A stretch of DNA of 64,000 bases from Bacillota bacterium (GCA_012842395.1 DUSX01000030.1:1-64000), one strand, 5' to 3'; shown: positions 538 to 21,329, counted from the stretch's first letter. A program made the numbers and translations. The notes: a model not told the origin generated them from the sequence alone.

Positions 538-1602
538 GTGATGCCGATGGCAGAACACAGTCTTCGCATAACCATTGACGGGGAAGAGATCAGAGAAGGG
601 GTACCGCTGCTACTCCTTGCGACAGTCTTCAGCGGCCTGCAGAGCACGATTTACTACATCGCGATGGCCGAATCCGGCCGCGATGTACGCACGAGGGCTC
701 GCGTGCCCGACGATATTCGGACGCAGTACCAGTTGATACGCACGGCGGAGCACAACAGCGCATATACCATTGAAGCCATGTTTGCACCCCCCGTGCAAGC
801 GTCTCTACCATTCGAACCCAACGGGCGGACGGCGGTGCTTGAGAAGTACACGGCCCTTCTGGGTGCCCTTTCGGAATCCGGCGACCGCACGCTGTCAGCG
901 CTGTTTCCTGACACGACATGGCGGAGGAGGATACTCCGGTCCCTGGAGGCTTATTGCCCGAAGAAGGGGGACCAGTGGCACCTAACCGTCAGTCGCGAGC
1001 CCAAAGGGAGTACGGCAACTCTTTCAGCCGCGACCCGCGCGCAAATAGTCAAACTCCTTGCTGAACCGGGATTCGAGGAGATGACCGTTAGCGGCGAGCT
1101 TGTGCGTATACATCTGGACGAGCACAAGCTTGGGATCTATTATCAGCCGACAAGCCGCGTGCTGGACTGCTACTACGACCCTGAACTGGAGGACCTGATC
1201 GTGGAGAATCTGAAAGGAATCGTCCATGTGACCGGCAGGGTCCAACTCGATGCGAACGGGTTTCCTGACAAGATCGTCAATGTTTCCGACATCCGTGCCC
1301 TTGACCTTCGACCGCTTGTGCTCAAATCAATCGAGACTGCTGGGGGGAGGCTCGTTCTCAGGCGGGCGGAGTCAGTCAAGCCATCATTTGAGAACGGGGA
1401 GGTCGTGTTCGAACTGCCCGACTTGCACATCGTCGCATCGGGCGCCACGCGTGAGGACGCTGTGGAGAAGCTCTTTTCCGATCTCGTCTGGTTGTGGAAG
1501 GAGTATGTGCTCGCACCTCACGACGAGTTGTCTCAGGACGCAAGAGAGCTCTCGGAACGTCTTCGTGGGATGATCGAGGAGGCTTCGGTGGGGAATGGGT
1601 GA
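538..1602 (+). CDS. Large HicB-like putative antitoxin
   Basis: A 354-residue protein encoded immediately upstream of, and overlapping by 8 nt, a HicA toxin gene, so it sits where HicB normally lies. The last ~75 residues look HicB-like: a strand-rich stretch (GEVVFELPDLHIVASGATRE) followed by a helix with a DAVEKLFSDLVWLWKEY pattern. HicB antitoxins are usually 70-140 residues; the ~270-residue N-terminal part is not one I recognise. The start may be GTG 538 or ATG 541; an AGAGG at 525-529 is 8 nt from the GTG. It is expected to neutralise the toxin and perhaps repress the operon; this is inferred from position and the C-terminal similarity. Confidence 0.65.
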   Translation: MMPMAEHSLRITIDGEEIREGVPLLLLATVFSGLQSTIYYIAMAESGRDVRTRARVPDDIRTQYQLIRTAEHNSAYTIEAMFAPPVQASLPFEPNGRTAVLEKYTALLGALSESGDRTLSALFPDTTWRRRILRSLEAYCPKKGDQWHLTVSREPKGSTATLSAATRAQIVKLLAEPGFEEMTVSGELVRIHLDEHKLGIYYQPTSRVLDCYYDPELEDLIVENLKGIVHVTGRVQLDANGFPDKIVNVSDIRALDLRPLVLKSIETAGGRLVLRRAESVKPSFENGEVVFELPDLHIVASGATREDAVEKLFSDLVWLWKEYVLAPHDELSQDARELSERLRGMIEEASVGNG

Positions 1603-4138: not shown

Positions 4139-5896
4139 TTGCGACACATAACCCGTCTCATTGCAATATCGCGCGACTACTGGAGTTGGATGGTACTGGC
4201 TTTCATAGCGATGCTGGGGACGACTGCCGCCAACTTGGCAGGCCCTTGGCTGATAAGAAGTCTTGTCGGCACAATTGAGGAAAGCTTCAGCCATGGAACG
4301 GCAGGCGCGAGCCAGGTAGTCAAGACGTCGGTGATTCTGCTCCTCGTGTATGCTCTCAGGCCCGCGCTCGCAGCCCTGCAAGTCTGGTCCACTCACGTTG
4401 CAGGGTGGGGCAGTGTGGCTGCGGCTCGGAAGCAGATATACGGGCATCTGCAAAGGCTCTCTCCGAAGTACTACTCGGCCACTCAGACAGGGCAGATCAT
4501 GTCCAGGGCAATCAACGATACAGCCTCTTTTGAGGCTTTGATCGCCCACGTGATCCCCGAGGCCATAGTCAGCCTCCTGACGGTCGGCGGGGTCTTTGTC
4601 GTGCTCTTCTCGATCAATCCAAGGCTGGCCTTATACACTTTGGTGCCCATCCCCTTCATCATACTCGGCTTCATCGCGTACAACCGATTCGTGCGTCCTC
4701 TCTTTCGCTATGCCCAGGCAAAGCTGGGGGATCTGAACGCGATCCTACAGGACAATCTAAGCGGGATGCGCGAGATCCAGGTATTCGCGCAGGAAGAGCG
4801 AGAAATGGAGTCCGTGGGAAAACGCATTATGGTGCATTCTAAGGCTATAACGAAAGCCGTGTCTACAAGCGCCTGCTTCCATGGGGCGATCGACTTCTTC
4901 GCAGGTCTCGGAACAGTCGCTGTTGTCTTGCTGGGCGGTTTGATGGCGCTCAGAGAACAGATATCTGTCGCGGACATCACAGGATTTCTTCTTTATGTGA
5001 GCCTCTTCTATGAGCCGATCATGAGGCTTAACCAGCTCAACGAGTCTCTTCAGCAAGCCTTGGCCGCCTCCGACCGCTATTTCGAAGTGCTCGACACAAA
5101 ACCCGACATAGATGACGCCCCCAACGCCATCCAACTCGGTAGGGTTGAAGGACGCATAACGTATGAGAACGTCTCCTTCAACTATGACGGCACCCCTGTG
5201 CTCAAGAACATAAACCTGGAGATCAAACCTGGCGAGATGGTTGCTCTCGTAGGTCCGACAGGTGTGGGAAAGACAACGATGGCCAACTTGATCCCGAGGC
5301 TCTACGATCCCACCGAAGGACGCATTCTCGTGGATGGCGTGGATATCCGCACTGTGACGGTCTCTTCCCTCCGCAGGAATGTGAGCATGGTGCTGCAGGA
5401 CGTGTTCTTGTTTAACGGGACGATCGCTGAGAACATAGCTTACGGCAGTCCTGACGCTACGTTGGAAGAAATCGTCGACGCTGCAGTAGCTGCAGGAGCT
5501 GATGAGTTCATCAGAGAGATGCCGAACGGGTACGACACCCACATAGGAGAGCGCGGCGTAAGGCTCTCGGGCGGACAGAAACAGAGGCTTGCCATAGCAA
5601 GGGCACTCCTCTACGATGCGCCCATTCTCATCCTGGATGAAGCGACATCATCGGTAGACACCGAAACCGAAGCCAAGATCGCAGCTACGCTGGAAAAGCT
5701 CATTCGGGGCCGGACTACCATAGTCATCGCGCACCGTCTCTCGACAATTCGCCGTGCGGACAGGATCATTGTGCTGGATGAAGGCGAGATAGTGGAGCAA
5801 GGGACACATGAAGAGTTAATGGCTCTGGGCGGCCTGTACGCCAGATTGGTCACGGTTGATTCAGACGGAGCGTGGCTTGCGCCGGAAAAGGCATAG
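4139..5896 (+). CDS. ABC-type exporter half-transporter (fused permease and ATPase)
   Basis: A 585-residue type IV ABC exporter (MsbA/LmrA-like). Residues ~10-310 form the six-helix transmembrane domain and ~340-580 the nucleotide-binding domain. Walker A is GPTGVGKTT at 372-380, the signature is LSGGQKQRLAIARAL from 476, and Walker B plus D-loop reads ILILDEATSSVD. Half-transporters act as dimers and export lipids, drugs or peptides; no partner gene is adjacent, so a homodimer is likely. A TTG start at 4139 is used, with GAGGTGA about 9 nt upstream. It converges on the helicase gene at 6070 with 173 bp between them and no clear terminator. The neighbouring MATE gene suggests both serve export, but they are not co-transcribed. 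Confidence 0.92.
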   Translation: MRHITRLIAISRDYWSWMVLAFIAMLGTTAANLAGPWLIRSLVGTIEESFSHGTAGASQVVKTSVILLLVYALRPALAALQVWSTHVAGWGSVAAARKQIYGHLQRLSPKYYSATQTGQIMSRAINDTASFEALIAHVIPEAIVSLLTVGGVFVVLFSINPRLALYTLVPIPFIILGFIAYNRFVRPLFRYAQAKLGDLNAILQDNLSGMREIQVFAQEEREMESVGKRIMVHSKAITKAVSTSACFHGAIDFFAGLGTVAVVLLGGLMALREQISVADITGFLLYVSLFYEPIMRLNQLNESLQQALAASDRYFEVLDTKPDIDDAPNAIQLGRVEGRITYENVSFNYDGTPVLKNINLEIKPGEMVALVGPTGVGKTTMANLIPRLYDPTEGRILVDGVDIRTVTVSSLRRNVSMVLQDVFLFNGTIAENIAYGSPDATLEEIVDAAVAAGADEFIREMPNGYDTHIGERGVRLSGGQKQRLAIARALLYDAPILILDEATSSVDTETEAKIAATLEKLIRGRTTIVIAHRLSTIRRADRIIVLDEGEIVEQGTHEELMALGGLYARLVTVDSDGAWLAPEKA

Positions 5897-6069: not shown

Positions 6070-9000
6070 TCAAATGAAGTACTTACGGATAATCGCGTCT
6101 GCCTCCCGGCTCAGGTCTCCTGACTCCTCCGTGATGATGAGCCGACCAGGGAAGAAGCGGTCATACCAGGCGCGTTTCTTCTCCCAGTGAGCCCGGTACT
6201 CAGGCCGGCTTAGTAGGCCTACGTGCTCCCAGTAATAGTCGCTTCCCCTCCAAGTGATAGTGAAATCAGGCAGGTAGAAGCTACCATCCGGACCGTACAA
6301 GGGCTCCTCATACCTAAACGGAATGCCGCGCTCGTGCAACATGTTGGCGATAATGACCTCTGATTTCGACCGGACCATCACGTCAGCAAGAGTGCCGTGC
6401 CCGCGTCCGTCCTCACGCCCACGCCATTCCTGTGCTGCCATCAACCCGTCAGGGACGGGGCGAAAAGCGAACAGCGAGGAGTTGATGCGCTCGAGATGGG
6501 AGTACTCCCGCCGTCGCATCTTGAGCAACATGGATACGTCCCTCTCGACCAGCAGCGTGCAGTGCTTTCTTGCTCGCGTCAAGGCGGTATAGAGCAACTC
6601 AGGAGAGAGCAGACCCTGCTTGCTCGCTGGAACCACCAGGTACACCCGATCGAAATCGCTGCCCTGGGCCTTGTGCACCGACAGCGCATACGCCAGCTCG
6701 AGGTTTTCACCCACTGATTCGTCAGGGCACCCATCGCCGAGATTGCGGCCGTAGCCCACCAGTAGGCCTTCTCGGCGAGCGAACACGACACAGAACCGCT
6801 CGAGGCGAAGACTTCGTGACAGCTCCTTGTCGCGATCAAGGGGGTGGCGCACGACGAAACCGATTTGTCCGTTGAAGACCTCAATGGGCTCGGGCTTGCC
6901 CTTTCCGCATTTGTAGCAGGCCTTAATCGGCCTGGAGCGCGGGCGGTTGACAACCTGGATAACCTTGTCGAAAAGCGTGATGCCGTCGATCGCTCCCACC
7001 TTACTGAGGAGGCTCTTGCGGAGCCGCTCCTGGCAGATTCGATTGATCTCCTCCGTTCCGAAGAACTCGCCCCTGTAGGGAGTAATGATCTGAAGATAGT
7101 CGGGACGCCTGTCGAATGCTTGGCTCCAGAGTACCCACGGTTTGTCTTCGTCCTCCACTGGCTTGCTCTTGCCGCGAGGCGGTCTACGTTCCAGGTCAGT
7201 CCTCATGTCCTGTTCGATCTGGCTGATGAGGAGGTCGTTCAGCTCTGCCTGGCTGCTCCAGTACAGAACGCGGAGGTCGTGGTCGATGTCGCCCCCTTCC
7301 TGGACCCGCTGGAGCATGATCTCCGCTGCCGTGCTGGCATCCTCGTTCTTGGCATCGCGGAGCGCCGTACGCAGGTAGCACTTCGCCAGGTCGATGATCC
7401 CGGTGCCGCCCCCGGTCAGCCTCCCTTGCGCCTGACGTAGGTTCTCAGTGAGCACCGCGACATTCTCCGGATAGTCCTTCTCGAGGTACTTGATGATGTC
7501 GCCGAATACACGCCCACGGCCGATCGGGGGAAGCTGGTTCGGATCGCCAACGAGAATCAAACGCTGTACGGACGACCATCTCACGGACCGGAAGAAGGCT
7601 GCTGCGAGCGAGAGGTCTAGCATCGAGCATTCATCGAGGATATACGTGGAGTACTGGTCTTCGATTTGTCCTCCCTGGCGCTTGAAGGACATGTTGGGAT
7701 TCAGCCATCCGTGGCGTGCGAGGAAAGAATGTATAGTTGCAACCTCCACTTTTCCTCTGAGAGCGTCATCTGCCTCGAGCACTTCTCGGATTCGGTCAGT
7801 GGCCTTCCCGGTGGGTGCGAGCGCGATCACCGACGCGCCTGCGCCGTGTCCCTTCTTGATGGCCTTCACGATAGCTCTCACCACCGTGGTCTTGCCGGTA
7901 CCTGCCTCCCCGCATAAGACGCCGAGCGGCTTCCGGAAGATCTTCTCACAGGCTTCCGCCTGGCGCTCGATTGCTTCTCGGTAGTCTTGTTCGGCCAGTC
8001 CGGCAAGAACGCTCTGCGGGTCGTACAAATAGTCGCGCCAGCTTTGCCTGGTGACCGGGAATTGCGGCTGGATGTCGGGACCTCCGAGGAGAAAGCGGAG
8101 GTCTTCCTCCAGCCTCCGCTCGTCTTCGTACACAGTGCGGAGGTACAGGTAAGTCCGATCGCCCTCGCGACGGATATGGAGCGCTCCGTGCATCACATCC
8201 GCGTCAACCTCGAGGTGCCGCTCACGAAAGGCGCACCGTTTCCATTCCGGCAGTGCGCTCAACCGTCGGTTGACACTCTCGATCAGCTGATCGGCAGCCG
8301 CGAAGCAGTGGGCGCTTTGCCTCTTCAGAGCATCCACGAGCAGCGCTCTCAGACGCCGTGGGTCGTCGACCGCGGCGCGAGAGTCGCAACCCAGGTCCGG
8401 AGAAGGAATCATGCCACGGTCGATTGTACCCCACGGTATGATGTCATCAGGGTCGTTGCCGAGGTATTGCTCGCATAGGATATAGGGGTTATTCGCTATG
8501 GCGTCAAGGTCGGCAGTGATGCCGTTCTCTTCCCTGTTCTCAGAGAGAATGCTGCAGATTTGTGCGGACTCTAGATCAAAACGTGGCAATACATCGCGAA
8601 GCAAGTGTTGCTCGGCCGGGGTCCGCACTTTCCACTTACGCAGGGCACCCTTTGCCTCGTCGGGCTTCAGATCGAGTCCGGGGACCGTGCTTACGCGGCC
8701 TTCAAGGAAACCGAAGATTGCGTCGTGAGCCTCCACCTCGCGGCCATCAAGGGCTTGTTTCTTGAAATAGGGTATGGCAGCGGGGAAGCCGATAGCTTCG
8801 AGCACTGCTCCCATTCCTGGCAGCAATCCTCGGTGCCGCCACAGCTCGGCGATTAGTCCCTGGAGCCACGCGGTACGGCTTCGCCAATCCTCTGTAGTGT
8901 CCCCGATGTCTCGCAGGTTTTCGACGACCCGGAGGAAGCTCTCGACGAGGCCAAGCGCGTCGTCGTCAGACAGGAGGCGGGTAGCGTACTTGCAGACTCG

Positions 9001-9702
9001 CGGGTTGTCCGGGAAGAGAGCAATCTGTTCGAGCACTTCCGGCTGGTTGCGATATTTGTGGTACGGGATTCGAAACCCCTGGTTCGGATAGTGCGATGTT
9101 ATGTTGCGCTGCCATACGAACCCACCACCGTATCGTTCCCGGACTCGTTGGGAGCATCCTTCGTAGAAAAGCTCATCGCCTACCGACTGCACCCTCGAAA
9201 GGCCCACGAGCACGTACCGCTTCATCTCGTCCTCGCTGAACGGGTTGGAGTAGTTTGCGTAGTAGAAGACCAGGCTGCGGTCAGGCTTGATACTATCGAA
9301 GTATGTGCGGGCACGTTCCAGGCGCCTGTCGTAGTCGAAGCGATTCCCGACACGCACATCGTCCGCATACATCTCTTCGTATGGCCAGACGCACACAGTG
9401 GCGGGCGGCACGGGCCATCGCCGGGTCGACGTTCCGTCCTTGAACCAGCTAGGGGGTTCAGCCTCGGCCTGCACCTCTTCGGCTCCAAAAGCGTTGATAC
9501 TGTAGCAACACGGAGGGATCCGGTCGAGGCTGCCACAGTGTTTGCCGGCGCACTGTTTCTCCCAGTTCAAGTCGCGGTTTTCTGCGATGTGCTGCCCGGG
9601 GTACGAATATTCTCCTACGCAGAAGGTGTTTGCGGCCGGGTTCCGGCAGATGCAGCCGTTCCAGCCATCATCGTGCCACGCGAGCCGTGCTGAGATGTGC
9701 AT
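6070..9702 (-). CDS. RecD-like SF1 helicase with cysteine-rich N-terminus and C-terminal nuclease-like domain
   Basis: A 1,210-residue protein. The N-terminal ~100 residues are cysteine-rich (CICRNP at 17-22, C28, then further pairs up to PPCC), suggesting metal binding. A ~450-residue middle of unknown fold follows. A RecD/ExoV-alpha type helicase core has Walker A GEAGTGKTT at ~598, motif II LDECSML at ~689, VGDPNQLPPIG, and a late motif YALSVHKAQGSDFDRVYLV with LLYTALTRARKH. The last ~110 residues (from ~1108) start VRSKSEVIIANML and include LPDFTI and YYWEHVG, a PD-(D/E)XK-like layout. Translation should start at MHIS (9702), because GGGAGGT lies 8 nt upstream; an ATG at 9720 overlaps that site. 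It is probably a DNA-processing defence enzyme, although no named system is recognised. Confidence 0.85.
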   Translation of the reverse strand: MHISARLAWHDDGWNGCICRNPAANTFCVGEYSYPGQHIAENRDLNWEKQCAGKHCGSLDRIPPCCYSINAFGAEEVQAEAEPPSWFKDGTSTRRWPVPPATVCVWPYEEMYADDVRVGNRFDYDRRLERARTYFDSIKPDRSLVFYYANYSNPFSEDEMKRYVLVGLSRVQSVGDELFYEGCSQRVRERYGGGFVWQRNITSHYPNQGFRIPYHKYRNQPEVLEQIALFPDNPRVCKYATRLLSDDDALGLVESFLRVVENLRDIGDTTEDWRSRTAWLQGLIAELWRHRGLLPGMGAVLEAIGFPAAIPYFKKQALDGREVEAHDAIFGFLEGRVSTVPGLDLKPDEAKGALRKWKVRTPAEQHLLRDVLPRFDLESAQICSILSENREENGITADLDAIANNPYILCEQYLGNDPDDIIPWGTIDRGMIPSPDLGCDSRAAVDDPRRLRALLVDALKRQSAHCFAAADQLIESVNRRLSALPEWKRCAFRERHLEVDADVMHGALHIRREGDRTYLYLRTVYEDERRLEEDLRFLLGGPDIQPQFPVTRQSWRDYLYDPQSVLAGLAEQDYREAIERQAEACEKIFRKPLGVLCGEAGTGKTTVVRAIVKAIKKGHGAGASVIALAPTGKATDRIREVLEADDALRGKVEVATIHSFLARHGWLNPNMSFKRQGGQIEDQYSTYILDECSMLDLSLAAAFFRSVRWSSVQRLILVGDPNQLPPIGRGRVFGDIIKYLEKDYPENVAVLTENLRQAQGRLTGGGTGIIDLAKCYLRTALRDAKNEDASTAAEIMLQRVQEGGDIDHDLRVLYWSSQAELNDLLISQIEQDMRTDLERRPPRGKSKPVEDEDKPWVLWSQAFDRRPDYLQIITPYRGEFFGTEEINRICQERLRKSLLSKVGAIDGITLFDKVIQVVNRPRSRPIKACYKCGKGKPEPIEVFNGQIGFVVRHPLDRDKELSRSLRLERFCVVFARREGLLVGYGRNLGDGCPDESVGENLELAYALSVHKAQGSDFDRVYLVVPASKQGLLSPELLYTALTRARKHCTLLVERDVSMLLKMRRREYSHLERINSSLFAFRPVPDGLMAAQEWRGREDGRGHGTLADVMVRSKSEVIIANMLHERGIPFRYEEPLYGPDGSFYLPDFTITWRGSDYYWEHVGLLSRPEYRAHWEKKRAWYDRFFPGRLIITEESGDLSREADAIIRKYFI

Positions 9703-10074
9703 CCCGAGAACCTCCCTCATTGGTTTCCTTGCTCTCAGACGCTGTCAGGCGTTCGTCATGCCGCGGAGGCGCGAGCAGCCGAGGGTCAAGCTACCGGTGT
9801 TGCGTTTGCTATGTCAGCGCCGCCACGTTAAATCGTTCCAAACCACCACTACCGAAACCACCGCCGCGCCCGGCCGAAACCACCGGCTGCCGGTGAGGTC
9901 CAAGAGTCCCATTATTGACAACCGCTGACGAGGCTCAGTGCTGCCCTTCCTCCTAGGCAGCCGTACGCCACCTGCCGCGGGCGCGCGATGGCTGTGTGAA
10001 CCAGAGTCTTGCTGTCCCTCGGAACAGAGCACTACTACCGCACCTGTGACAAACCGACAAAGCCAATTAGCACA
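9703..10074. other. Intergenic region between the two helicase genes
   Basis: About 370 bp between two minus-strand genes, presumably holding the promoter for the RecD-like gene. No open frame with a ribosome-binding site or recognisable product was found on either strand, and no clear terminator. The spacing argues against tight co-transcription of the two helicase genes. Confidence 0.4.
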
Positions 10075-12270
10075 TCATGTCTTCCGGATTACCCTCACGA
10101 ACCAGGCATGCTGCGAAAACGGCAATCGTGCAACCTTCTCGATGCCTAGATAAGGACCAGTTGGGAGCGCTGCCCCTGAAGCAGGCATAAGCAGTCCGGG
10201 GGGAGAATCGATTCTGGCAGCCAGCCCCGCGTTGATGGCCGCTTGCACCCCTGGATTATCGAGCCAAGCCTCACCAGGGAACTCGCGCAGAACGGCGTAG
10301 CTGACATTATTCGGACTCGTGACAGGCTCGGGGGCGCTCTGTGTCTCATGGGGGCGAGCGTCGGGCCCGTGGTCTGACCTTGAGACTGAAGACTCGACTT
10401 CGTCCTTGGGCTCGATTTCGTCCTTGTCAGGGTGTTCGTCTTCGTCGGGACCGCCATTCGAGACGTCGCTTGCGTTAGCATCGGATTCCCGCCTCGATGG
10501 CTCGACGCCGCCTTCGATCTGCGCGATAACCGTGGCCAGGCTGCGCTCCTTATCGGGCGACAGCGCTTCGGCCTCGATGGACTCGAACCACTCGGGTTGC
10601 CCGCCGAGGACAGTGAGTATTGCCCGTGCGCGAGACATCCCAGTGTACAGAAGAGCGGTCCTCACGGGCGCATCCCAGCCCCAGCCGCCTAGAACCTCGA
10701 TCTCGGCCAGGACAACCCCAGGTCGCTCAAGCCCTTTGAATCTCCAGATGGACGATACGAGCACATGCCGGCCGTTTTCTTTTACATTGCGTGGGTCCCA
10801 CGTAAGGATGTAATTGCCGACCCGCTTTCCCTCGGAGAGCTGAGACTTCCCCGCCAACGGCGTCAAAATGACGAAGTCTCGAGGGCTCAGATGTCTCTCC
10901 ACGAAGAACTCATGCAAAACCTGACTCAATAGCTTCGGATTCTCGCTAATCCCGCCTCCCAAGTATATCCGGGGCTCGGGTCCCGGCACGTCTGGAGGGT
11001 TAGGAGTACGGCCTTGATAGAGTTTGACTACCATATCATGAATTGGCCTGGTAAAGCGCACGCTCTGAGGCAGGAGGTATGACGGGCCGCCAATAGGCCA
11101 GCAGCGCTTTGCCGAGTACAGCCGTTGGTTGTCGTCATAGAAGATGTAGAACGCCCCATTCTTCCTGCGAAGCAAATCCAGGGGCACCCACCAGAGTTCG
11201 TCGAAGTCCTGACCCTCGTCCACAATGATTGCATCGAATTGCGGACCCAGGCGCTCGGCTGCCTTCGTAAGAGCCTCGGCCCATTGCGGGTCGTCTCGTC
11301 CGAATCTACGTGGGTCAAGCTGACTAGCGATCTCGTTGAGGCCTGCTCTCGCAGCTAAAGACCGGCAAAGGCTATGAAAGGTCCCCACTTCCAGTCTCAG
11401 TAGGTCCGGAAGATTGCCCGTGCTGCTTCTGATCCTTGTGTGGAGCTCCGGCTTGATCCAATCGGCAAGCGGTCTATTAAAGCACGTCAATAGAACACTC
11501 AGACCCTGCTCGTAGAATTGCTGAGCCTTTATCATTGCTAGGAATGTCTTCCCGGAGCCTGCACACCCACTTATAAGCGCCTCTTTCTGCTGCTCAAGGG
11601 CGGTGAGTATATTGACCTGGGCTTCCGTGAGGCGTGAGATGCCTCCCTCAATCTCGTCAATGACTCGCGACAAATCAACCGGCAGCCGCACAGCGGGGCA
11701 GAGGACTTCGACAAGCGCGTCAACAGCCTTCTTGCCGGAAGCGACGTCATTCCACTTAGGTGCGCCCAATTGCCTTTCGATCTGTCCCAGCCTGGTTTCG
11801 AGATGCCTCAGGTCATTCGAGTCGATGATGCGTTCCCTGGGTATCGGGCCGACCTGCTGATTGCCGGAGATCGATACATCGGGAAAGGCTACAGCCCAGC
11901 CAAATCTGTACTGAATGTTTGACGTGCGGGGATCGGTCTTTAGCTTTCTTTCGATCGCATGCGCATTGTCTTGCGCCTGTCGCACGGGGTCTTTTATCTC
12001 GTGTCTCTTGCCGTTCAGGCTGGTGCTGTACCACGTACCAGTCTCCCGGTCGAATTCGATCGCACCACCCTTTATCTCAACGACCAAGTAGCCCCAGGTC
12101 GTGTCGCCGATAATCACGTCGGCCTCGGCTTCGGACCCTGCTCTCGGGAAGAGGGACAATCCGAACATCGCCACGAAATCGTCCGGTAAGCGTCTGCATT
12201 CTTCGTGGAAGCGGCGTTCTGCCATGCTCTTGACGTGGTTTCCGAGCTTTGCGGGATACAGCTTAGCCAC
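10075..12270 (-). CDS. NERD-nuclease domain/SF1 helicase fusion
   Basis: A 731-residue protein. The N-terminal ~150 residues are a NERD (nuclease-related) domain: D51 in EADVIIGD and E65-I-K67 in VVEIKGG form the restriction-endonuclease-like active site. A UvrD/Rep-like helicase follows: Walker A GCAGSGKTFL at ~236, motif II VDEGQDFDELWW at ~348, and C-terminal SSIWRFKGLERPGVVLAEIE then ALLYTGMSRARAILTV. After residue ~580 comes a strongly acidic, probably disordered linker of ~70 residues, then a short conserved-looking tail. The GTG start at 12270 has GGTGGG about 5 nt upstream. NERD-helicases occur in phage-defence loci. Here the gene lies between the RecD-like helicase and a divergent Gabija-like pair, so a defence role is inferred. 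Confidence 0.85.
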   Translation of the reverse strand: MAKLYPAKLGNHVKSMAERRFHEECRRLPDDFVAMFGLSLFPRAGSEAEADVIIGDTTWGYLVVEIKGGAIEFDRETGTWYSTSLNGKRHEIKDPVRQAQDNAHAIERKLKTDPRTSNIQYRFGWAVAFPDVSISGNQQVGPIPRERIIDSNDLRHLETRLGQIERQLGAPKWNDVASGKKAVDALVEVLCPAVRLPVDLSRVIDEIEGGISRLTEAQVNILTALEQQKEALISGCAGSGKTFLAMIKAQQFYEQGLSVLLTCFNRPLADWIKPELHTRIRSSTGNLPDLLRLEVGTFHSLCRSLAARAGLNEIASQLDPRRFGRDDPQWAEALTKAAERLGPQFDAIIVDEGQDFDELWWVPLDLLRRKNGAFYIFYDDNQRLYSAKRCWPIGGPSYLLPQSVRFTRPIHDMVVKLYQGRTPNPPDVPGPEPRIYLGGGISENPKLLSQVLHEFFVERHLSPRDFVILTPLAGKSQLSEGKRVGNYILTWDPRNVKENGRHVLVSSIWRFKGLERPGVVLAEIEVLGGWGWDAPVRTALLYTGMSRARAILTVLGGQPEWFESIEAEALSPDKERSLATVIAQIEGGVEPSRRESDANASDVSNGGPDEDEHPDKDEIEPKDEVESSVSRSDHGPDARPHETQSAPEPVTSPNNVSYAVLREFPGEAWLDNPGVQAAINAGLAARIDSPPGLLMPASGAALPTGPYLGIEKVARLPFSQHAWFVRVIRKT

Positions 12271-13130: not shown

Positions 13131-15179
13131 GTGCTGCTTACTGAGTTGCGCATCGAGAATTTCCGCATGTTCGGAGAGGGGAAGAACGCGCTAGTGCTTC
13201 CTGTCAGGCCAGGTCTAACCGCGCTCATCGGGGAGAATGATGCTGGTAAGACTGCTGTTATAGATGCCCTTAGACTTGCCCTCGGCACTCGTGATCAAGA
13301 GACGATCAGGATCGATGAAGACGACTTTCACCAGGCTGTGGACGGCTCGCGGTCAACGGAGATACGGATTCGCTGCAAGTTTGAGAAGCTCACTCGGCAG
13401 GAGCTCGGGACTTTTCTGGAGCACCTAACCTATGAGGACGAGAACGGCACGAGAGTCCCCGTCCTCTATGTGAACTGGAAGGCTACTGAGACAGCTAGAG
13501 GAACCAGCCAAAGGCGATCTGTGCTCTTCGAGACGCGATCAGGAAAGGCAGGAGACGGTCCTCAGATTGACCGTGAATGCAGAGACTTTCTGCGATCGAC
13601 TTATCTCAGACCATTACGTGATGCCGAGCGCGCGCTGGCCTCCGGTCGCGGTTCGCGCCTCTCCCAGATCCTGCAGAACGCCAAAGAAGTCAAAGAATAC
13701 GGCGAGGACTACGATCCCGAGAAGGGACCACCTAAGGAGCTCGCCAAGTTGAGCGTTCTCGGGATAGGCAGGCTCGCAGATGAGCTTCTGAGTAATCACG
13801 AGGGGATTCAGGCCGCACGCAAACGATTAAATGATCAATTCCTCAAGCCGCTTTCGTTCAGCGGCAGTCCGTTGGAAGGGCACATTTCGGTAAGCGGGTC
13901 AAGAGGAGATGCGAGTTCGCGCCTTCGTCAGCTGCTGGAGAAGCTCGACCTTGAACTGCGCAATGGGACAGGTGAGAGCATTCCGCCCAATCACGGCCTT
14001 GGATCCAACAATCTGTTGTTCATGGCTTGCGAGCTACTACTCCTGGGGTCAGAAGAAGATGGGTTCCCGCTGTTACTCATCGAGGAACCGGAGGCGCATC
14101 TTCACCCACAACGACAACTTCGCCTCATGCAGTTTCTTCAGGAGAGCGTTAGCCAGCGATACCTTGCTGAGCAAACAGGCGACCCCAAGGGACACGGCAT
14201 CCAAATCATTGTCACGACACATAGCCCGAACCTCGCGTCAGCAATTGATTTGGACAACCTTGTCTTACTGCATGAGGGCAAGGCATACTCGCTGGCGTTC
14301 GGCAACACGAAACTCGACAAGTCGGACTACGGGTTCCTCAGGCGATTCCTTGACGTTACAAAAGCGAACCTGTTCTTTGCCCGCGGTGTAATGATAGTCG
14401 AGGGTGATGCCGAGAATATCCTCTTGCCTACCATTGCCGAACTGCTTGGGCGGGATTTCACTGAGTATGGTGTGTCCATAGTCAATGTGGGCGGCACTGG
14501 TCTGCGTCGGTTTGCCCGCATCTTTCAGCGCAAGGATCCTGAGAGAGACGGAATGATCAGCATTCCCGTCGCCTGCGTGGCAGACTTCGATGTGATGCCA
14601 GACTGTGCACCGGAAATCATCGGGAAGGTCAAGGCTGATGAAGGCTGGCCCACCAGAAGTAGCCGTCGCTGGCTGGCCAAGAGGGATTTGACGGAGGATA
14701 TGCTTCGAGAGCGTCGGGATGCGATCCGGAAGAGGGCCAGTGGTCAGTGTGTTGAGACATTCGTCGCAGATCAATGGACTTTGGAATACGATTTGGCTTT
14801 CTTCGGGCTGGCCAAGGAAGTCTGGGCTGCCGCGCATCTGGCTCAGGCAGATGACCAGATTAGCACAGGCAAGACGTCGCTCGAGTGTGTGATCTGCGAA
14901 GCGTCGCGCGCATTCGAGGACCTGTTGGATCAAGGCCTGTCGAAGGAGGAACTGGCGTCACGCGTGTACGCACCCTTCGTGTTGGACTCAAGCATCTCGA
15001 AGGCCACTGCAGCTCAGTATCTTGCACACCTACTGCAAGAACGACAGAGAAAGGAGCCATTGCCGCCAGACGGCTGGCGGTCTATTCTACCACCATATCT
15101 TGTTGGAGCAATCGACTATGTCACTGGTACTACCAGCAACGGAGTGGGCGGCGGAGAGGAGGGTGCACTGCATGCATGA
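13131..15179 (+). CDS. OLD-family ATP-dependent nuclease (GajA-like)
   Basis: A 682-residue protein with an ABC/SMC-like ATPase and a C-terminal TOPRIM nuclease domain. Walker A is GENDAGKT at 34-41, Walker B is LLLIEEPEAHLHP from ~314 and is followed by IIVTTHSPNLAS. The TOPRIM acidic residues are E424 (MIVEGDAEN) and D485/D487 (VADFDVMP). OLD class 2 nucleases encoded directly before a UvrD-type helicase form Gabija-type phage defence, in which the nuclease cuts DNA when nucleotides are depleted. The described GajA is shorter (about 580 residues); the excess here is mostly after the TOPRIM core. A GTG start is used, with GGGGGTGA 8 nt upstream. Its end overlaps the helicase start by 8 nt. 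Confidence 0.88.
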   Translation: MLLTELRIENFRMFGEGKNALVLPVRPGLTALIGENDAGKTAVIDALRLALGTRDQETIRIDEDDFHQAVDGSRSTEIRIRCKFEKLTRQELGTFLEHLTYEDENGTRVPVLYVNWKATETARGTSQRRSVLFETRSGKAGDGPQIDRECRDFLRSTYLRPLRDAERALASGRGSRLSQILQNAKEVKEYGEDYDPEKGPPKELAKLSVLGIGRLADELLSNHEGIQAARKRLNDQFLKPLSFSGSPLEGHISVSGSRGDASSRLRQLLEKLDLELRNGTGESIPPNHGLGSNNLLFMACELLLLGSEEDGFPLLLIEEPEAHLHPQRQLRLMQFLQESVSQRYLAEQTGDPKGHGIQIIVTTHSPNLASAIDLDNLVLLHEGKAYSLAFGNTKLDKSDYGFLRRFLDVTKANLFFARGVMIVEGDAENILLPTIAELLGRDFTEYGVSIVNVGGTGLRRFARIFQRKDPERDGMISIPVACVADFDVMPDCAPEIIGKVKADEGWPTRSSRRWLAKRDLTEDMLRERRDAIRKRASGQCVETFVADQWTLEYDLAFFGLAKEVWAAAHLAQADDQISTGKTSLECVICEASRAFEDLLDQGLSKEELASRVYAPFVLDSSISKATAAQYLAHLLQERQRKEPLPPDGWRSILPPYLVGAIDYVTGTTSNGVGGGEEGALHA

Positions 15180-17193
15180 CTCCTCACGATTCACACTGCC
15201 GGCCATCAGCGACGAGGATGTCAGCTGGGTATGCCAGCTGCTGGGTCTTCCGTCGGACGCATTTTCTGGCCATGATGGCAACGATCCCCGATTGGAAATC
15301 CTCAAATGCGTCGAAACTCTGGACGTTGAGGCTTGCCCAGGTAGTGGCAAGACGACTCTACTCGTCGCGAAGCTTGCCATTCTGTCGCGAAAATGGACAG
15401 ACCCACATCGTGGCCTTTGCGTACTCTCGCACACGAATGCTGCCAGGCAGGAGATAGAGAACCGCCTAGGCAATAGCCCCGAGGGAAGGCGTCTGCTCTC
15501 CTATCCTCACTTTATTGGCACAATCCATGCATTCGTGAACGAGTTCCTGGCGATACCATGGCTTCGCTCTAAGCCGCTTCCGATACGAATGATCGACGAC
15601 GAGGTAAGCCGGGGTCGTCGGTGGAAAAGACTCTCTTCGAACCATCGGCACGCCTTGAGACGAGCCAGGAAAGACCCGAGCATCCTCACGATCTCTGCCA
15701 GCGATTTCAGCGTGGGAGATGTGAATTGGCGTGGGGGCAAGCTGGGGAAAACCACTCTCATCTACCAGGCCATTCAAGCTGCGTGCAAGACAGTGTGTGA
15801 GGAAGGATTCTTCTGCTACGATGAGATGTTTGTCTGGGCGAATGAGCTTCTTGACCAGGTGCCTAGCATTCGAAACGCCGTGAGAGATCGCTTTCCGGCT
15901 GTCTTCATCGACGAGGTACAGGACAACAGCGAGATGCAGTCGCGTCTATTGTTTCGGTTGTTCATGGATGGAGACCACCCTGTTGTTCGCCAACGTTTTG
16001 GCGATACAAATCAGGGGATCTACCAAAACATCGGTCAGACCGAGGGTGCAACTACCGACCCATTTCCCGACCCATCGGTCTGCGTGAGTATTCCGAACAG
16101 CCACCGATTTGGTCAGGAGATCGCCGACATCGCCAATCCTCTGGCGCTTGAACCTCAGGGCCTTGTTGGCTGCGGCCCTCGTAGAGACACCATAACAACT
16201 GACACAACGGGTAAGCACGCCATCTTTGTCTTTAGCGATCAGACCATCCTCAACGTGCTCCCAAGCTATGCTGGCTACCTCATGGAGGTTTTCTCAGATA
16301 GCGAGCTGCGGGCTGGGACGTTCACTGCTGTGGGCGCTGTTCATAGGCCTGAGGCAAACGACAGCCTGCCTCACTCAGTCCGCGACTACTGGCGAGATTA
16401 CGACCCCGAGCTGACCCGCACGGAGCCGAAGCCAAGCACGTTCCGTCAGTATGTCGAAGCAGGTCGGAGGCTGGCACGGGAGTCCGGCGAGTGTCATTGG
16501 ATCGTCGAGAAGATAGCTGACGGAATCCTGCAATCGGTACGGATCTTGAACCCAACGGTGAACCTAGTCACCACAACACGAAAGCACCGGTATGTCCTTG
16601 AATTACTGGCCGACAGGCCGGACCTTAGGGCAGCATATCTTGAACTCGTTACAGCGCTTACCATTGACGAACGCGGTCCGACTGTTGAGGACTGGTGCGG
16701 AAGGTGGTCGGCCGTCATCACAGACATCGCCGCGGCAATAGGCAATACATCCGCTGCTTCGCAAGATGTCCAGCGCTTCCTGGAATGGCCGATACCGGAT
16801 GATGGCGGTCAAACGACGGGCGCCTCGCGGCAGCGTGACAACGTTTTCCGGTATCCTGCCCTGGCACCGAAGGTGCATATCCGCGTAGGGTCTATTCATT
16901 CGATGAAAGGGCAGACTCACACGGCTACGCTTGTTCTTGACACCTACTACAGGGGGAAGCACCATCTCGCGACGCTCATACCTTGGCTCCTTGGGGCAAA
17001 ATCGGGCAAAGGAACCGAGCGTCCGGTGACTCTACTCCGACTTAAGCAACACTATGTCGCGATGACGCGGCCCAGTCATCTCCTGTGTCTTGCCATGAGA
17101 GAAGATGCTTTCCGGAAGGGAGAACTCGATCGGCTGAAGTCCATGCACTGGCGGATTGCCCGGGTTACCGATGGAGATCCAGTGTGGCTGTGA
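15172..17193 (+). CDS. UvrD/Rep-type helicase partner (GajB-like)
   Basis: A 673-residue SF1A helicase. Walker A is ACPGSGKTTLL (54-64), motif II is FIDEVQDNSEMQ (from 245), and the C-terminal part has GSIHSMKGQTHTATLVLDTY and LKQHYVAMTRPSHLL, corresponding to motifs V and VI. ATG 15172 is preferred because GGAGAGGAGGG lies just upstream within the nuclease gene, and the ATGCATGA overlap gives translational coupling. In Gabija the helicase senses DNA ends and activates the nuclease. This protein is longer than the described GajB (~490 residues), so it may belong to a related OLD class 2 subtype. Confidence 0.87.
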   Translation: MHDSSRFTLPAISDEDVSWVCQLLGLPSDAFSGHDGNDPRLEILKCVETLDVEACPGSGKTTLLVAKLAILSRKWTDPHRGLCVLSHTNAARQEIENRLGNSPEGRRLLSYPHFIGTIHAFVNEFLAIPWLRSKPLPIRMIDDEVSRGRRWKRLSSNHRHALRRARKDPSILTISASDFSVGDVNWRGGKLGKTTLIYQAIQAACKTVCEEGFFCYDEMFVWANELLDQVPSIRNAVRDRFPAVFIDEVQDNSEMQSRLLFRLFMDGDHPVVRQRFGDTNQGIYQNIGQTEGATTDPFPDPSVCVSIPNSHRFGQEIADIANPLALEPQGLVGCGPRRDTITTDTTGKHAIFVFSDQTILNVLPSYAGYLMEVFSDSELRAGTFTAVGAVHRPEANDSLPHSVRDYWRDYDPELTRTEPKPSTFRQYVEAGRRLARESGECHWIVEKIADGILQSVRILNPTVNLVTTTRKHRYVLELLADRPDLRAAYLELVTALTIDERGPTVEDWCGRWSAVITDIAAAIGNTSAASQDVQRFLEWPIPDDGGQTTGASRQRDNVFRYPALAPKVHIRVGSIHSMKGQTHTATLVLDTYYRGKHHLATLIPWLLGAKSGKGTERPVTLLRLKQHYVAMTRPSHLLCLAMREDAFRKGELDRLKSMHWRIARVTDGDPVWL

Positions 17194-17779: not shown

Positions 17780-18658
17780 ATGCGAGTCGAGGTCTTCTAT
17801 AAGCTACATCCTCCCTCAGTCTTCGGGCTTCCCGGCGACGATTACACAGTGATACCTGGGGGAGAAGCCGGCATTAAGGACGTCGTAGGCCCGACGATTG
17901 ATACACTGACGGGCTCGGTTGTAGGCCTCGGAACATTAAGCCAGTATCGAAGGTTTGATGAGAGACTGTCCCTGCGTCTTGAACGCGAGGGTGTAGGAGT
18001 GCAACTTGTAGACAACTATGTGACTCTGACACTAGATATTGACGGCCGGTCTCTGGATCTCGAAAAGTGCGAAAGCCTGATTGAGAGTCTCTGTCTGTGG
18101 CTTACCCACTTCGCGTCCACGCCTGTCTTCGCCGAGCCCCTGCAGGCGGTCATTCCCGAAACCCAACAGGTTCTGCCACTTAGGACAACTTGTACGGCCA
18201 TGAAATACCGATGGTATCATGTCCCAACTATAGAGGGATCTGTCCGTGAGTGGAGTTCTTGTAACTTGCAAGAACACCTGATGGCTGCTCTGCGCTACTA
18301 TCGGCTGGGCTTGCTCTTGGCAGAAACGGGTAGCTCTCACTTTGATTCGTTTCAGGCGCAGCTGATGGTGGAAGCTATCAGCAATTACTGGAAGGCTGTT
18401 TCTGCGATAGTGGGCGATCCTTCAGTGGATCGAGACTATCAAAGGCGTTATCGTCAATACGGTATTGACGAGGCGTTCTTCAAGGGTGAAATCGAATGGC
18501 TCCGCGAGGACATGCGCAATCAGTCAGGTGTTGCACACTATCGTCTGGGCAGACCTGACTCGGCCAGGCTGCTTGAGGACTGCAGTCGGGCAGGCCGCAT
18601 AGCAAAAACAGTCATTGCAGCCGCAATTCGGTACGACATGACGGGCACGTCGCGTTAG
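17780..18658 (+). CDS. Uncharacterised protein with a HEPN-type RNase motif
   Basis: A 292-residue protein starting at ATG 17780, with GGAGGAAGG 4-5 nt upstream. The first ~150 residues look beta-rich and are not recognised. The last ~130 residues are helical and contain MRNQSGVAHYRL, in which R246-N247 and H253 give the R(N)X5H signature (RX6H overall) of HEPN domains, many of which are metal-independent RNases. HEPN proteins act as effectors or toxins in many defence systems. The position, directly after a Gabija-like pair and before the island boundary, fits a defence role. No neighbouring antitoxin (for example MNT) gene is visible. The HEPN call is based on the motif and helix pattern only. 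Confidence 0.6.
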   Translation: MRVEVFYKLHPPSVFGLPGDDYTVIPGGEAGIKDVVGPTIDTLTGSVVGLGTLSQYRRFDERLSLRLEREGVGVQLVDNYVTLTLDIDGRSLDLEKCESLIESLCLWLTHFASTPVFAEPLQAVIPETQQVLPLRTTCTAMKYRWYHVPTIEGSVREWSSCNLQEHLMAALRYYRLGLLLAETGSSHFDSFQAQLMVEAISNYWKAVSAIVGDPSVDRDYQRRYRQYGIDEAFFKGEIEWLREDMRNQSGVAHYRLGRPDSARLLEDCSRAGRIAKTVIAAAIRYDMTGTSR

Positions 18659-19011
18659 TTCATTGGAACGCGTGGGGGTCGCGCCTACCTTGGGACGCGC
18701 TATAACTGGCGGCGGCCAGTAGGATCCGTCGTGCCAGGTCAAGGGGAGACGCGGGATTGGTCTTAGCCGGGCTCTGTGCCAAACGGCGCGCCAGGTGAAG
18801 CTGTTGCAGGTTGCTAACATATGTAATGGGGCTTGTCTCAGCGCGCCGGAGCACGATAGGTTCGGGTATTACGACGAGAGGTACCTAGTTGGTAAGCGTT
18901 GTAATGGCATTAGCTGGCGTCAGCAGATATCAACAAGGGGCGGAGCTCGCCGACCAACGCCCCCCCAACCACCAGCCGGCCAAGCCCGATGTTGTCCATG
19001 CGATCCCGTGC

Positions 19012-19256
19012 GCGACCACGTGATGCGGCGCCTCCAGGACGCGGGGATCGGGTGCCGTCCGTACTTCACTCCCATCCGCCTGCAGCCCTTCTACCGAGCC
19101 GAGTTCGGGTCCAAGGAGGGCGCCTTCCCCGTCACGGGGCTTGCCGGGCGGACGAGCATCGGCATCCCGTTCCACAACCACCTCAACCACCTCACTGCCG
19201 GGGAGACCGACTACGTCGCCTGCGTTCTCGAGCGGGCGCCGAAGAACGCGCAGTAG
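19012..19256 (+). pseudogene. Second 3' remnant of a DegT-family aminotransferase gene
   Basis: The frame reads RDHVMRRLQDAGIGCRPYFT, then PIRLQPFYRAEFGSKEG, then AFPVTGLAGRTSIGIPFHNH, ending at TAG 19254-19256. This is the C-terminal ~80 residues of a DegT-type PLP aminotransferase. The N-terminal three quarters, including the PLP lysine, are missing. Compared with the remnant at 102-257 it carries a 9-bp duplication (CAACCACCT) that inserts NHL. The DNA of the two remnants is very similar, so they share a recent origin. Confidence 0.65.
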
Positions 19257-19540: not shown

Positions 19541-19816
19541 TCAGGTCTGACGACATCTGCCAATGTCCCTCGCGCGACCTTCGGCCGTTGTAAACGGGGC
19601 GATGATCGCCGCCGACGACGATCGGGTAACGCGCGTTTGCCGAAGCGTGTCCAGCCCGGTACGGAGGAGGCAGGGGTGTGGCTTCTCTTCGAGGTTGAAA
19701 AGGTAGATGCCTCCATCGGCAATGCCATCCTTGAGACGGCTTCGGGCTTCGTGGCTGATGACGTGGTGGCTCGAACCGCTGCACGGCTGGTCCACGTAGC
19801 GCCCGAACTGCTCCAC
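19541..19816 (-). CDS. Small hypothetical ORF coupled to the methyltransferase gene
   Basis: A 91-residue minus-strand frame whose GTG (19816-19814) overlaps the TAG of the upstream methyltransferase gene. The central stretch (SRLKDGIADGGIYLFNLEEK) reads like protein, and codon third positions are G/C rich. No family is recognised and the last third is low in hydrophobic core. The opposite strand is also open, so this may be a decayed or chance frame. The 19257-19540 stretch before it shows nothing further. Confidence 0.3.
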   Translation of the reverse strand: MEQFGRYVDQPCSGSSHHVISHEARSRLKDGIADGGIYLFNLEEKPHPCLLRTGLDTLRQTRVTRSSSAAIIAPFTTAEGRARDIGRCRQT

Positions 19817-20661
19817 TACGCATCTTTCCCTTCACGACTGCCTAGCTTGTAATAGAGAATTCGATGCGCCTTTTTGGCTGCTGTGAAAAGGCCCGCCATC
19901 TTGAATGCCAGGCGATACGCTAACCCGAGCTTCTCAATATCCTCAGCTTGCGTAAAGTACCACTCTTCCTTCAGCTGAATACCTGTTGCCCACCGCTCTA
20001 TCGCCTTGGCATCATCGATTCCCCAGTGAATGGCAGCCCCCGTCTTGTTGATCGATGGATGCCTTTGGGCATTTCTCGCCGTCAGAACGCTATACGCATC
20101 AAACACGAGGTCGCATCCAGGGAAAACCTCTTTCAATTTGAGGATCAACGCCCTTACTTCTTCGTCTTTCAGGTACATGAACAGCCCCTCCGCAATTACC
20201 AGCACAGGGCGACCTCGCGATGAAACGTCAGCCATCCAACCAAACTCCGTGACGGAAGACGGAATCATATGATAAGTATCGGTTTCCCTGTAAAATCTTC
20301 GCCTGAGGTCAATGACGTCAGGCATATCCAAATCATACCACTCGGCTTCACCGTTATTCACCCTGGTATAGCGGCTGTCAAGACCACACCCTAGATGAAT
20401 TACAACACTCCTGGGATGGCGGGCTAAGAATTCTCGCGTATAGGCATCGAACTTCTTTGCTCTTAGGCAAAGCAACACGACTGTTTTTCTAGGAATTCTG
20501 AGTTTGGTAAAGTCATATTCGATGCGGTCCAAAATCTCTTGCGCTTTTCTATCGACGAAGATGGGGCTAGGTTGCTGGCTCTCGACAGCCTTAGAGTACA
20601 GAGGAACCAACAGCGTTTCCTGTTCTTTCGCCAGGAGTATCCTTTCTTTACGGTCTGACAT
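19816..20661 (-). CDS. Leucine carboxymethyltransferase-like SAM-dependent methyltransferase
   Basis: A 281-residue class I methyltransferase of the PPM1/TcmP-like family. The SAM-binding loop is VVIHLGCGLDSRYTRV, followed by the acidic EWYDLDMPDVIDLRRRFY typical of this family. The family methylates carboxylates or small molecules, often in natural-product pathways; no biosynthetic partners are nearby, so the substrate is unknown. The start at 20661 has GGAGGTGG 5 nt upstream. Base composition is lower in GC than the neighbours, which could indicate transfer. Confidence 0.85.
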   Translation of the reverse strand: MSDRKERILLAKEQETLLVPLYSKAVESQQPSPIFVDRKAQEILDRIEYDFTKLRIPRKTVVLLCLRAKKFDAYTREFLARHPRSVVIHLGCGLDSRYTRVNNGEAEWYDLDMPDVIDLRRRFYRETDTYHMIPSSVTEFGWMADVSSRGRPVLVIAEGLFMYLKDEEVRALILKLKEVFPGCDLVFDAYSVLTARNAQRHPSINKTGAAIHWGIDDAKAIERWATGIQLKEEWYFTQAEDIEKLGLAYRLAFKMAGLFTAAKKAHRILYYKLGSREGKDA

Positions 20662-21329
20662 TTTACCACCTCCAATTGTTGACGTGGCCGAACACGGGAG
20701 CAGCCAGTACGCGTCCACCTTCGCAAACCACACGCGTGAAGCTTAGTCGGAGCAAGTCCTTCCAGCCCACCTCGCCGCCTCTGCCGCTCGGCTCCCTGGC
20801 ACCAGATGCGTCCTATGCTTGAGGAACCGAAGGTGGCGCTCAAGTGCTCGGATGCGCCGGATGGACCGGATGGGCCGGATGCGCCATCCCTCAACGATCG
20901 TTCGGTGCACCTCCTCGGAGGGTCCTCCCCACGGTCATAAGCTTCACCGCACGCTCTACCCCACCTGGATGGCTCGAACGTTCAATTCAAGATCCGGGCA
21001 CCATGTCCTCCTTTCCAACTGGAAATGATGGCGAGCCTGGGTCGGAGCCGACCCGCCCCTCGGTACGGAGCAAAAAGCTGGCGTAGCCGCAGTTCGTCAC
21101 GATGACGTAGGAGAAGTCGGCAAAGCCGCCGCTCGCCGCGATGACGGAGGAGAAACCCGGTAAAGCCGGTAGAGGCGGCGTTGGCCGCGGTGATGGAGGG
21201 GAAGGCAGGATGGCAAAACTATCATGAAAATGATGCTCTATGGTTTAGCGGTGAGAAATTGTCATATGTCGGGATCCCACGCGCATAGGATCGGTACGTA
21301 GCTACCCACCGTCACCTCACGCGCGAGAA
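20662..21329. other. Intergenic region with degenerate short repeats
   Basis: No gene is supported. Around 20848-20885 there are five near-copies of GCCGGATG. Between 21070 and 21210 three degenerate units of about 40-47 bp share a GATGACGKAGGAGAA core. Read on the minus strand they give a protein-like string (SSVIAASGGFADFSYVIVT) interrupted by a frame change, so this may be the residue of a dead coding sequence. Confidence 0.4.

What the first reader, a model, noticed from the sequence alone, without database searches (positions are those of the whole stretch)
6070..12270. RecD-like helicase with cysteine-rich N-terminus and C-terminal nuclease, next to a NERD-helicase: possible undescribed defence module
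Two large minus-strand nuclease-helicases of different types stand side by side within a defence island. The first has an N-terminal Cys-rich domain and a ~450-residue middle domain that I cannot assign. Each on its own resembles single-gene nuclease-helicase immunity; the pair does not match a named system that I know.
Basis: partly seen in the sequence, partly recalled or inferred. Interest (0 to 1): 0.75.

Follow-up and report, generated by a model that had tools for sequence, protein, structure and literature searches.

The report
Single-gene helicase-nuclease, already a defence candidate
The large gene is a mobile helicase-nuclease that probably cuts invading viral DNA and is already listed as an uncharacterised phage-defence candidate (PDC-S68); its apparent pairing with the neighbouring NERD-helicase is not repeated in other genomes, so there is no new two-gene system here.

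Summary
The gene at 6070-9702(-) encodes a 1210-aa protein with a Cys-containing N-terminus, a long unassigned region, a RecD2-type helicase core and a C-terminal PD-(D/E)XK-like nuclease. It lies beside a NERD-UvrD helicase and a complete Gabija pair.

The large protein matches PADLOC family PDC-S68 over its full length (1708 bits), so it is an already listed but uncharacterised single-gene defence candidate. It is not RecD2: 220 bits against a 500 cut-off, and the genome has a separate RecD2.

The pair is not a module. No NERD-helicase lies in the flanks of about 75 homologous loci. It occurs in 2 of 50 genomes that carry S68, against a base rate of 18 of 398.

The family is spread over many phyla, two archaeal lineages, plasmids and viral contigs. 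Its members often sit tightly beside or inside R-M, BREX-like and SNF2-helicase operons.

Possibly new is residues 1-390, a confidently modelled region with no Pfam, PDB or BFVD relative. It carries three cysteines that are kept or lost together.

Most likely the N-terminal region senses or loads on DNA, the SF1B motor translocates, and the nuclease cuts. These steps are inferred, and no activity has been measured.

The parts
6070..9702 (-). PDC-S68 family helicase-nuclease gene, 1210 aa (ORF can be read from 9720)
   Evidence: PDLC05066 1708 bits over residues 7-1214 of 1216; Shine-Dalgarno-like GGGAGG before the ATG at 9702
9478..9702 (-). N-terminal Cys motif, residues 1-75 (R-x-x-WHD-x-x-W-x-G-x-x-C-x8-C ... 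C65 ... F72)
   Evidence: C19/C28/C65 present together in 64 of 67 homologs, absent together in 3
8533..9405 (-). unassigned region, residues 100-390; beta-rich part about 140-245, helical part about 246-390
   Evidence: AlphaFold model mean pLDDT 91.3 for residues 1-575; no Pfam, no PDB or BFVD match at E<0.001
8008..8505 (-). RecD2-like N-terminal (HHH/winged-helix) region, residues 400-565
   Evidence: TIGR01448 alignment starts at residue 406 of the 1216-aa reading; PF14490 in 15 of 59 homologs
6523..7989 (-). SF1B RecD2-type helicase core, residues 572-1060; Walker A GEAGTGKT, Walker B DE, GDPNQLPPIG
   Evidence: Pfam AAA_30/AAA_19/UvrD_C_2; motifs invariant in 67 homologs
6085..6405 (-). 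C-terminal PD-(D/E)XK-like nuclease, residues 1100-1206; S1112-K1113-S1114-E1115, P1145-D1146-F1147, E1159-H1160
   Evidence: invariant E, PDF, EH; Foldseek best hits Bax1, DrdV, R2, Hjc, TnsA
10075..12270 (-). NERD-UvrD helicase gene (independent neighbour, not part of an S68 system)
   Evidence: PF08378 and PF00580; PDLC03813 RTasNERD-Hel 163 bits; no linkage to S68 elsewhere
13131..15179 (+). gajA of Gabija (neighbouring, separate system)
   Evidence: PDLC00099 701 bits; OLD-like TOPRIM domain
15172..17193 (+). gajB of Gabija (ORF opens at 15022; PADLOC match begins at residue 56, so a start near 15172 is likely)
   Evidence: PDLC00105 625 bits

Best explanation
The 6070-9702 gene is a complete member of the candidate defence family PDC-S68. 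It most likely works alone as a single-protein immune helicase-nuclease. The N-terminal region (1-390, with a three-cysteine site that probably binds a metal) recognises or loads the enzyme on an infection-specific DNA feature, such as a free end or an ssDNA-containing replication intermediate. The RecD2-type SF1B motor then translocates 5'->3', and the C-terminal PD-(D/E)XK-like domain cuts the DNA. Shown here: the architecture, the conservation of motor, nuclease and Cys motifs, wide mobile distribution, and repeated placement among other defence operons. Inferred: metal binding, translocation polarity (from the RecD2 family), the trigger, and the antiviral outcome. The NERD-helicase and Gabija are separate neighbouring systems.
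For: Full-length PDC-S68 match. About 65 full-length homologs in bacteria and archaea, also on plasmids and viral contigs. Gene tree mixes phyla; the nearest relatives of the window protein are Caldisericota (64-65%), another genome of the window's phylum (58%), Myxococcota, Bacteroidota and Alphaproteobacteria. Absent from 5 same-genus and 6 same-family genomes. Neighbourhood: methyltransferase-like ORF within 8 kb in 29 of 66 S68 loci against 0 of 13 housekeeping RecD/RecB control loci. PADLOC families at E<=1e-20: 178 among 111 nearest neighbours against 16 among 91 control neighbours. SNF2-type helicase within about 4 kb in 13 loci. Tight same-strand neighbour in 39 of 64 loci. S68 lies between PglXI and BrxHI in L020. 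Helicase and nuclease motifs invariant; nuclease fold hits. PDCs were defined by embedding inside other immune systems (PMC12988326). The single-gene precedent Hna is a helicase plus C-terminal PD-(D/E)XK protein (PMC13381803).
Against: No phage-sensitivity or biochemical data for any S68 protein in the held library. The nuclease fold match is modest (best E 3e-3), and the usual catalytic lysine after the second acidic motif is replaced by EH, so the active site is inferred. The frequent operon partners could mean that S68 needs a partner in many hosts, which would weaken 'works alone'. The control set for neighbourhoods is small and the methyltransferase test is a motif search.
Confidence: 0.62

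Rival explanations
1. S68 is an accessory effector that depends on a co-resident restriction-modification or BREX-type operon: it processes DNA nicked or cut by, or marked as unmodified by, that system. In this genome it would act with whatever modification system is present.
For: Methyltransferase-like genes within 8 kb in 29 of 66 loci; S68 placed directly after type III res, type I hsdS or hsdM, or between PglXI and BrxHI; tight operon-like spacing in 39 of 64 loci.
Against: Partners are of many unrelated kinds, and 37 of 66 loci show no methyltransferase-like neighbour by this test. In the window's relative G348 the gene is flanked by ordinary genes and a transposase-like ORF (my reading). 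The window itself has none within the ORFs scanned.
Confidence: 0.2
2. S68 and the NERD-helicase (10075-12270) form a two-gene defence module.
For: Adjacent, same strand, about 370 bp apart; both carry a nuclease and a helicase.
Against: No NERD-helicase in flanks of about 75 S68 loci; 2 of 50 S68 genomes against 18 of 398 base rate; only the window's genome has both in the phylum sample; the 370-bp gap is long for an operon.
Confidence: 0.04
3. S68 is a DNA-repair or recombination enzyme carried on mobile elements (a RecD2 or RecBCD-like end-processing enzyme), not an immune effector.
For: RecD2-type core; present on plasmids and in viral contigs, where end processing or plasmid maintenance could be selected.
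Against: Patchy distribution (6 of 398 genomes of the phylum), strong enrichment for defence neighbours, a fused nuclease and a 390-aa N-terminal region that RecD2 lacks, and a separate intact RecD2 in the same genome.
Confidence: 0.12

Closest known systems
PADLOC PDC-S68 (phage-defence candidate; models PDLC05064, PDLC05065, PDLC05066)
   Same: Full-length match, 1708 bits to PDLC05066 over 7-1214
   Different: Nothing tested differs; the family itself has no published mechanism in the held library
RecD2 (TIGR01448, SF1B helicase)
   Same: Helicase core and part of the preceding helical region; 27% identity to this genome's own RecD2 over residues 513-1051
   Different: Score 220 against cut-off 500; S68 adds about 390 N-terminal residues and a C-terminal nuclease
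Hna (single-gene helicase plus C-terminal PD-(D/E)XK nuclease; PMC13381803)
   Same: One protein with a helicase motor and a C-terminal PD-(D/E)XK-type nuclease
   Different: Hna has an N-terminal SF2 motor; S68 has a RecD-type SF1 motor and a long N-terminal region
Nhi (single-gene nuclease-helicase, said to respond to phage SSB; PMC12904381)
   Same: Single-gene nuclease-helicase logic
   Different: The PADLOC Nhi model is not among the 25 best hits for S68
DRT-associated NERD-helicase (RTasNERD-Hel) and C3a187 (for the neighbour at 10075-12270)
   Same: NERD plus UvrD architecture, 163 and 64 bits
   Different: No reverse transcriptase found among the nearby ORFs scanned; about 175 extra C-terminal residues

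Membership tests
PDC-S68 | profile match over the whole protein | tested here: met
   PDLC05066 E=0, 1708 bits, residues 7-1214 against model 3-1200 of 1202
PDC-S68 | found embedded in or beside other defence systems | tested here: met
   for the family: PglXI-S68-BrxHI in L020, R-M and SNF2 neighbours; in the window: beside Gabija
PDC-S68 | antiviral activity | not testable with these tools
   no paper found
RecD2 (TIGR01448) | NCBIfam cut-off of 500 bits, full-length match | tested here: not met
   220 bits, partial; the genome's own RecD2 scores 895 bits full length
Hna | N-terminal SF2 helicase | tested here: not met
   matches are SF1/RecD-type: TIGR01448, TIGR01447, UvrD_C_2
Hna | C-terminal PD-(D/E)XK nuclease | tested here: inconclusive
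   fold hits to PD-(D/E)XK enzymes at E 3e-3 to 0.3; E, PD and E motifs invariant; catalytic Lys not placed
Two-gene S68 plus NERD-helicase system | recurrent co-occurrence | tested here: not met
   0 of about 75 loci; 2 of 50 genomes against 18 of 398
Gabija (13131-17193) | GajA with TOPRIM next to GajB | tested here: met
   701 and 625 bits, adjacent, same strand
DRT with RTasNERD-Hel (10075-12270) | adjacent reverse transcriptase | tested here: not met
   the adjacent ORFs are S68, a 119-aa ORF without a Pfam match, and GajA

The most novel reading that the evidence does not exclude
Residues 1-390 of the PDC-S68 family are a previously unclassified sensor region with a three-cysteine metal site, which confers infection specificity on a RecD2-type motor-nuclease. 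The family would then be a distinct SF1B class of single-gene immunity beside the SF2-type Hna.
Probability: 0.35. Interest if true: 0.6.

Novelty: new member of a known kind. Interest (0 to 1): 0.36.

Why it matters
It removes a false two-gene 'module' and points to a widespread, mobile, unstudied single-gene candidate. If active, S68 would be an immune enzyme built on the 5'->3' RecD2-type motor with a sensor region that has no known structural relative. The all-or-none loss of three cysteines gives a direct handle for mutagenesis.

Tried and rejected
(1) S68 plus NERD-helicase pair: rejected by neighbourhood and genome counts. (2) Housekeeping RecD2: rejected. (3) Phage decoy: a viral contig (L014) encodes only the first 96 residues of the S68 N-terminus, 63% identical, which looked like an anti-defence mimic. 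The ORF just before it joins the N- and C-terminal ends of a methyltransferase related to the one upstream of S68 in L020. The pair is therefore better read as an internally deleted remnant of a methyltransferase-S68 operon. (4) Middle domain as a PUA/EVE-like modified-base reader: suggested by the S-L-V-F-F-Y ... V-G-V-G pattern, but Pfam scans at E up to 5 gave nothing and Foldseek gave no support; left as speculation. (5) Empty-site comparison: the flanking genes at 4139-5896 and 19816-20733 have no close match in the five same-genus genomes, so the island borders could not be set. (6) Repeats at the island borders: none of 22 bp or more.

Full report
What is there. The gene at 6070-9702 on the minus strand encodes 1210 residues. 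The start at 9702 has a Shine-Dalgarno-like GGGAGG, and nearly all homologs begin there. Pfam places RecD/UvrD-type helicase domains at about 585-1056 and nothing before residue 580. NCBIfam RecD2 (TIGR01448) matches only partly, 220 bits against a cut-off of 500. The genome carries its own full-length RecD2 elsewhere, 895 bits, which aligns to S68 only over residues 513-1051 at 27% identity. PADLOC model PDLC05066, PDC-S68, matches over the whole length with 1708 bits. The 10075-12270 gene is a NERD-UvrD helicase. The genes at 13131-17193 are an intact Gabija pair.

The family. A profile scan of genome contigs, read back as ORFs, gave about 65 full-length homologs. They come from Pseudomonadota, Actinomycetota, Bacillota, Bacteroidota, Planctomycetota, Myxococcota, Acidobacteriota, Spirochaetota, Caldisericota and others, and from two archaea (L031, L054). 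Further homologs lie on plasmids and in IMG/VR viral contigs, nine of them full length. A tree of 67 proteins mixes phyla (24 label changes where 13 is the least possible). It puts the window protein with a Caldisericales MAG, then with a same-phylum genome and with Myxococcota, Bacteroidota and Alphaproteobacteria. Only 6 of 398 genomes of the phylum have the gene. None of the 5 same-genus or 6 same-family genomes does. This is the pattern of a mobile gene.

Anatomy. In 67 aligned homologs the Walker A and B motifs, the GDxxQLPPIG motif and the HKxQGS motif are invariant. So are E1115, P1145-D1146-F1147 and E1159-H1160. The C-terminal model (mean pLDDT 85) has PD-(D/E)XK enzymes as best structural hits: Bax1, DrdV, R2, Hjc, TnsA. 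The E-values are only 3e-3 and weaker, and no canonical lysine could be placed. The N-terminal model (residues 1-575, mean pLDDT 91) has no PDB or BFVD match at E<0.001 and residues 1-390 have no Pfam family. Residues 406 onwards align with RecD2, and HHH_RecD2 appears in 15 of 59 homologs. C19, C28 and C65 occur together in 64 of 67 proteins. They are lost together in the remaining three, which form one clade (L013, L040, L078). This all-or-none pattern suggests a shared metal site; that is inference.

The pair. Flanks of up to 10 kb around about 75 S68 loci contain no NERD-helicase relative at E<1e-5. Among 398 genomes of the phylum, 6 have S68 and 18 have the NERD-helicase at E<1e-30; only the window's genome has both, where about 0.3 would be expected by chance. 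Among 50 other S68 genomes, 2 have the NERD-helicase, which is the base rate. The adjacency is therefore most simply co-location in a defence island.

What S68 keeps company with. Of 64 loci, 39 have a same-strand gene packed against S68. SNF2-family helicases lie within about 4 kb in 13 loci. Methyltransferase-like ORFs lie within 8 kb in 29 of 66 loci, against 0 of 13 housekeeping RecD/RecB loci (a motif test on a small control). Nearest neighbours hit 178 PADLOC families at E<=1e-20 against 16 for control neighbours. In L020, the closest homolog, S68 lies between PglXI and BrxHI. By blastp clusters, other loci place it next to relatives of hsdM, hsdS, hsdR or type III mod/res genes; these names are my reading of the clusters together. 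PDCs are described as single-gene candidates found by 'guilt-by-embedding' (PMC12988326, citing Payne et al. 2024). The observations here agree with that.

How it most likely works. By analogy with Hna, where a helicase domain and a C-terminal PD-(D/E)XK domain act in one protein and a phage SSB triggers it (PMC13381803), I infer a three-part enzyme: N-terminal recognition, SF1B translocation, cutting. Architecture and conservation are shown; activity, polarity, trigger and outcome are not. Autonomous action is preferred over dependence on an R-M operon because the partners are unrelated to one another, many loci show no methyltransferase-like neighbour, and neither the window nor G348 shows such an operon.

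A false lead. A viral contig carries a stand-alone copy of the first 96 residues. The preceding ORF fuses the two ends of a methyltransferase related to the L020 one. The pair is best read as a deleted remnant of a methyltransferase-S68 operon and not as an evolved decoy.

Verdict. The description is right and the pairing is wrong. The larger gene is a new example of a catalogued but unstudied defence candidate. The part worth a specialist's time is the unclassified N-terminal region with its three-cysteine site.

Noticed in passing
window 13131-17193 (+): Complete Gabija pair (GajA 701 bits, GajB 625 bits) beside the two genes of the finding; no second GajA-like match in the genome.
   Followed up: yes
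window 10075-12270, residues about 556-731: The NERD-helicase has an acidic linker and a C-terminal region beyond the PADLOC model; the best homolog (G373, 42% identity) aligns to residues 1-727, so the tail is shared there.
   Followed up: no
L014 7804-8424 (IMGVR_UViG_3300017971_000034): Remnant of a methyltransferase-S68 operon: a 66-aa ORF joining the two ends of a methyltransferase, then the first 96 residues of S68 with a different tail.
   Followed up: partly
L013, L040, L078: A clade of S68 proteins (Vibrio plasmid, Mycobacteriales MAG, Enterococcus) has lost all three N-terminal cysteines and H10 together.
   Followed up: partly
L020 7170-16413: Contiguous PglXI methyltransferase, S68 and BrxHI helicase in a Caldisericales MAG.
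   Followed up: partly
L075 9980-15868: S68 homolog whose open frame continues to 1963 aa; the last 703 residues have no Pfam match.
   Followed up: partly
window 538-1602 (+), 17780-18658 (+): Two ORFs of 354 and 292 aa near the island with no Pfam, PADLOC or NCBIfam match.
   Followed up: no
window 18795-19256 (+): ORF whose C-terminal half looks like the end of a DegT/DnrJ-type aminotransferase (my reading, not searched), a possible gene fragment at the island edge.
   Followed up: no
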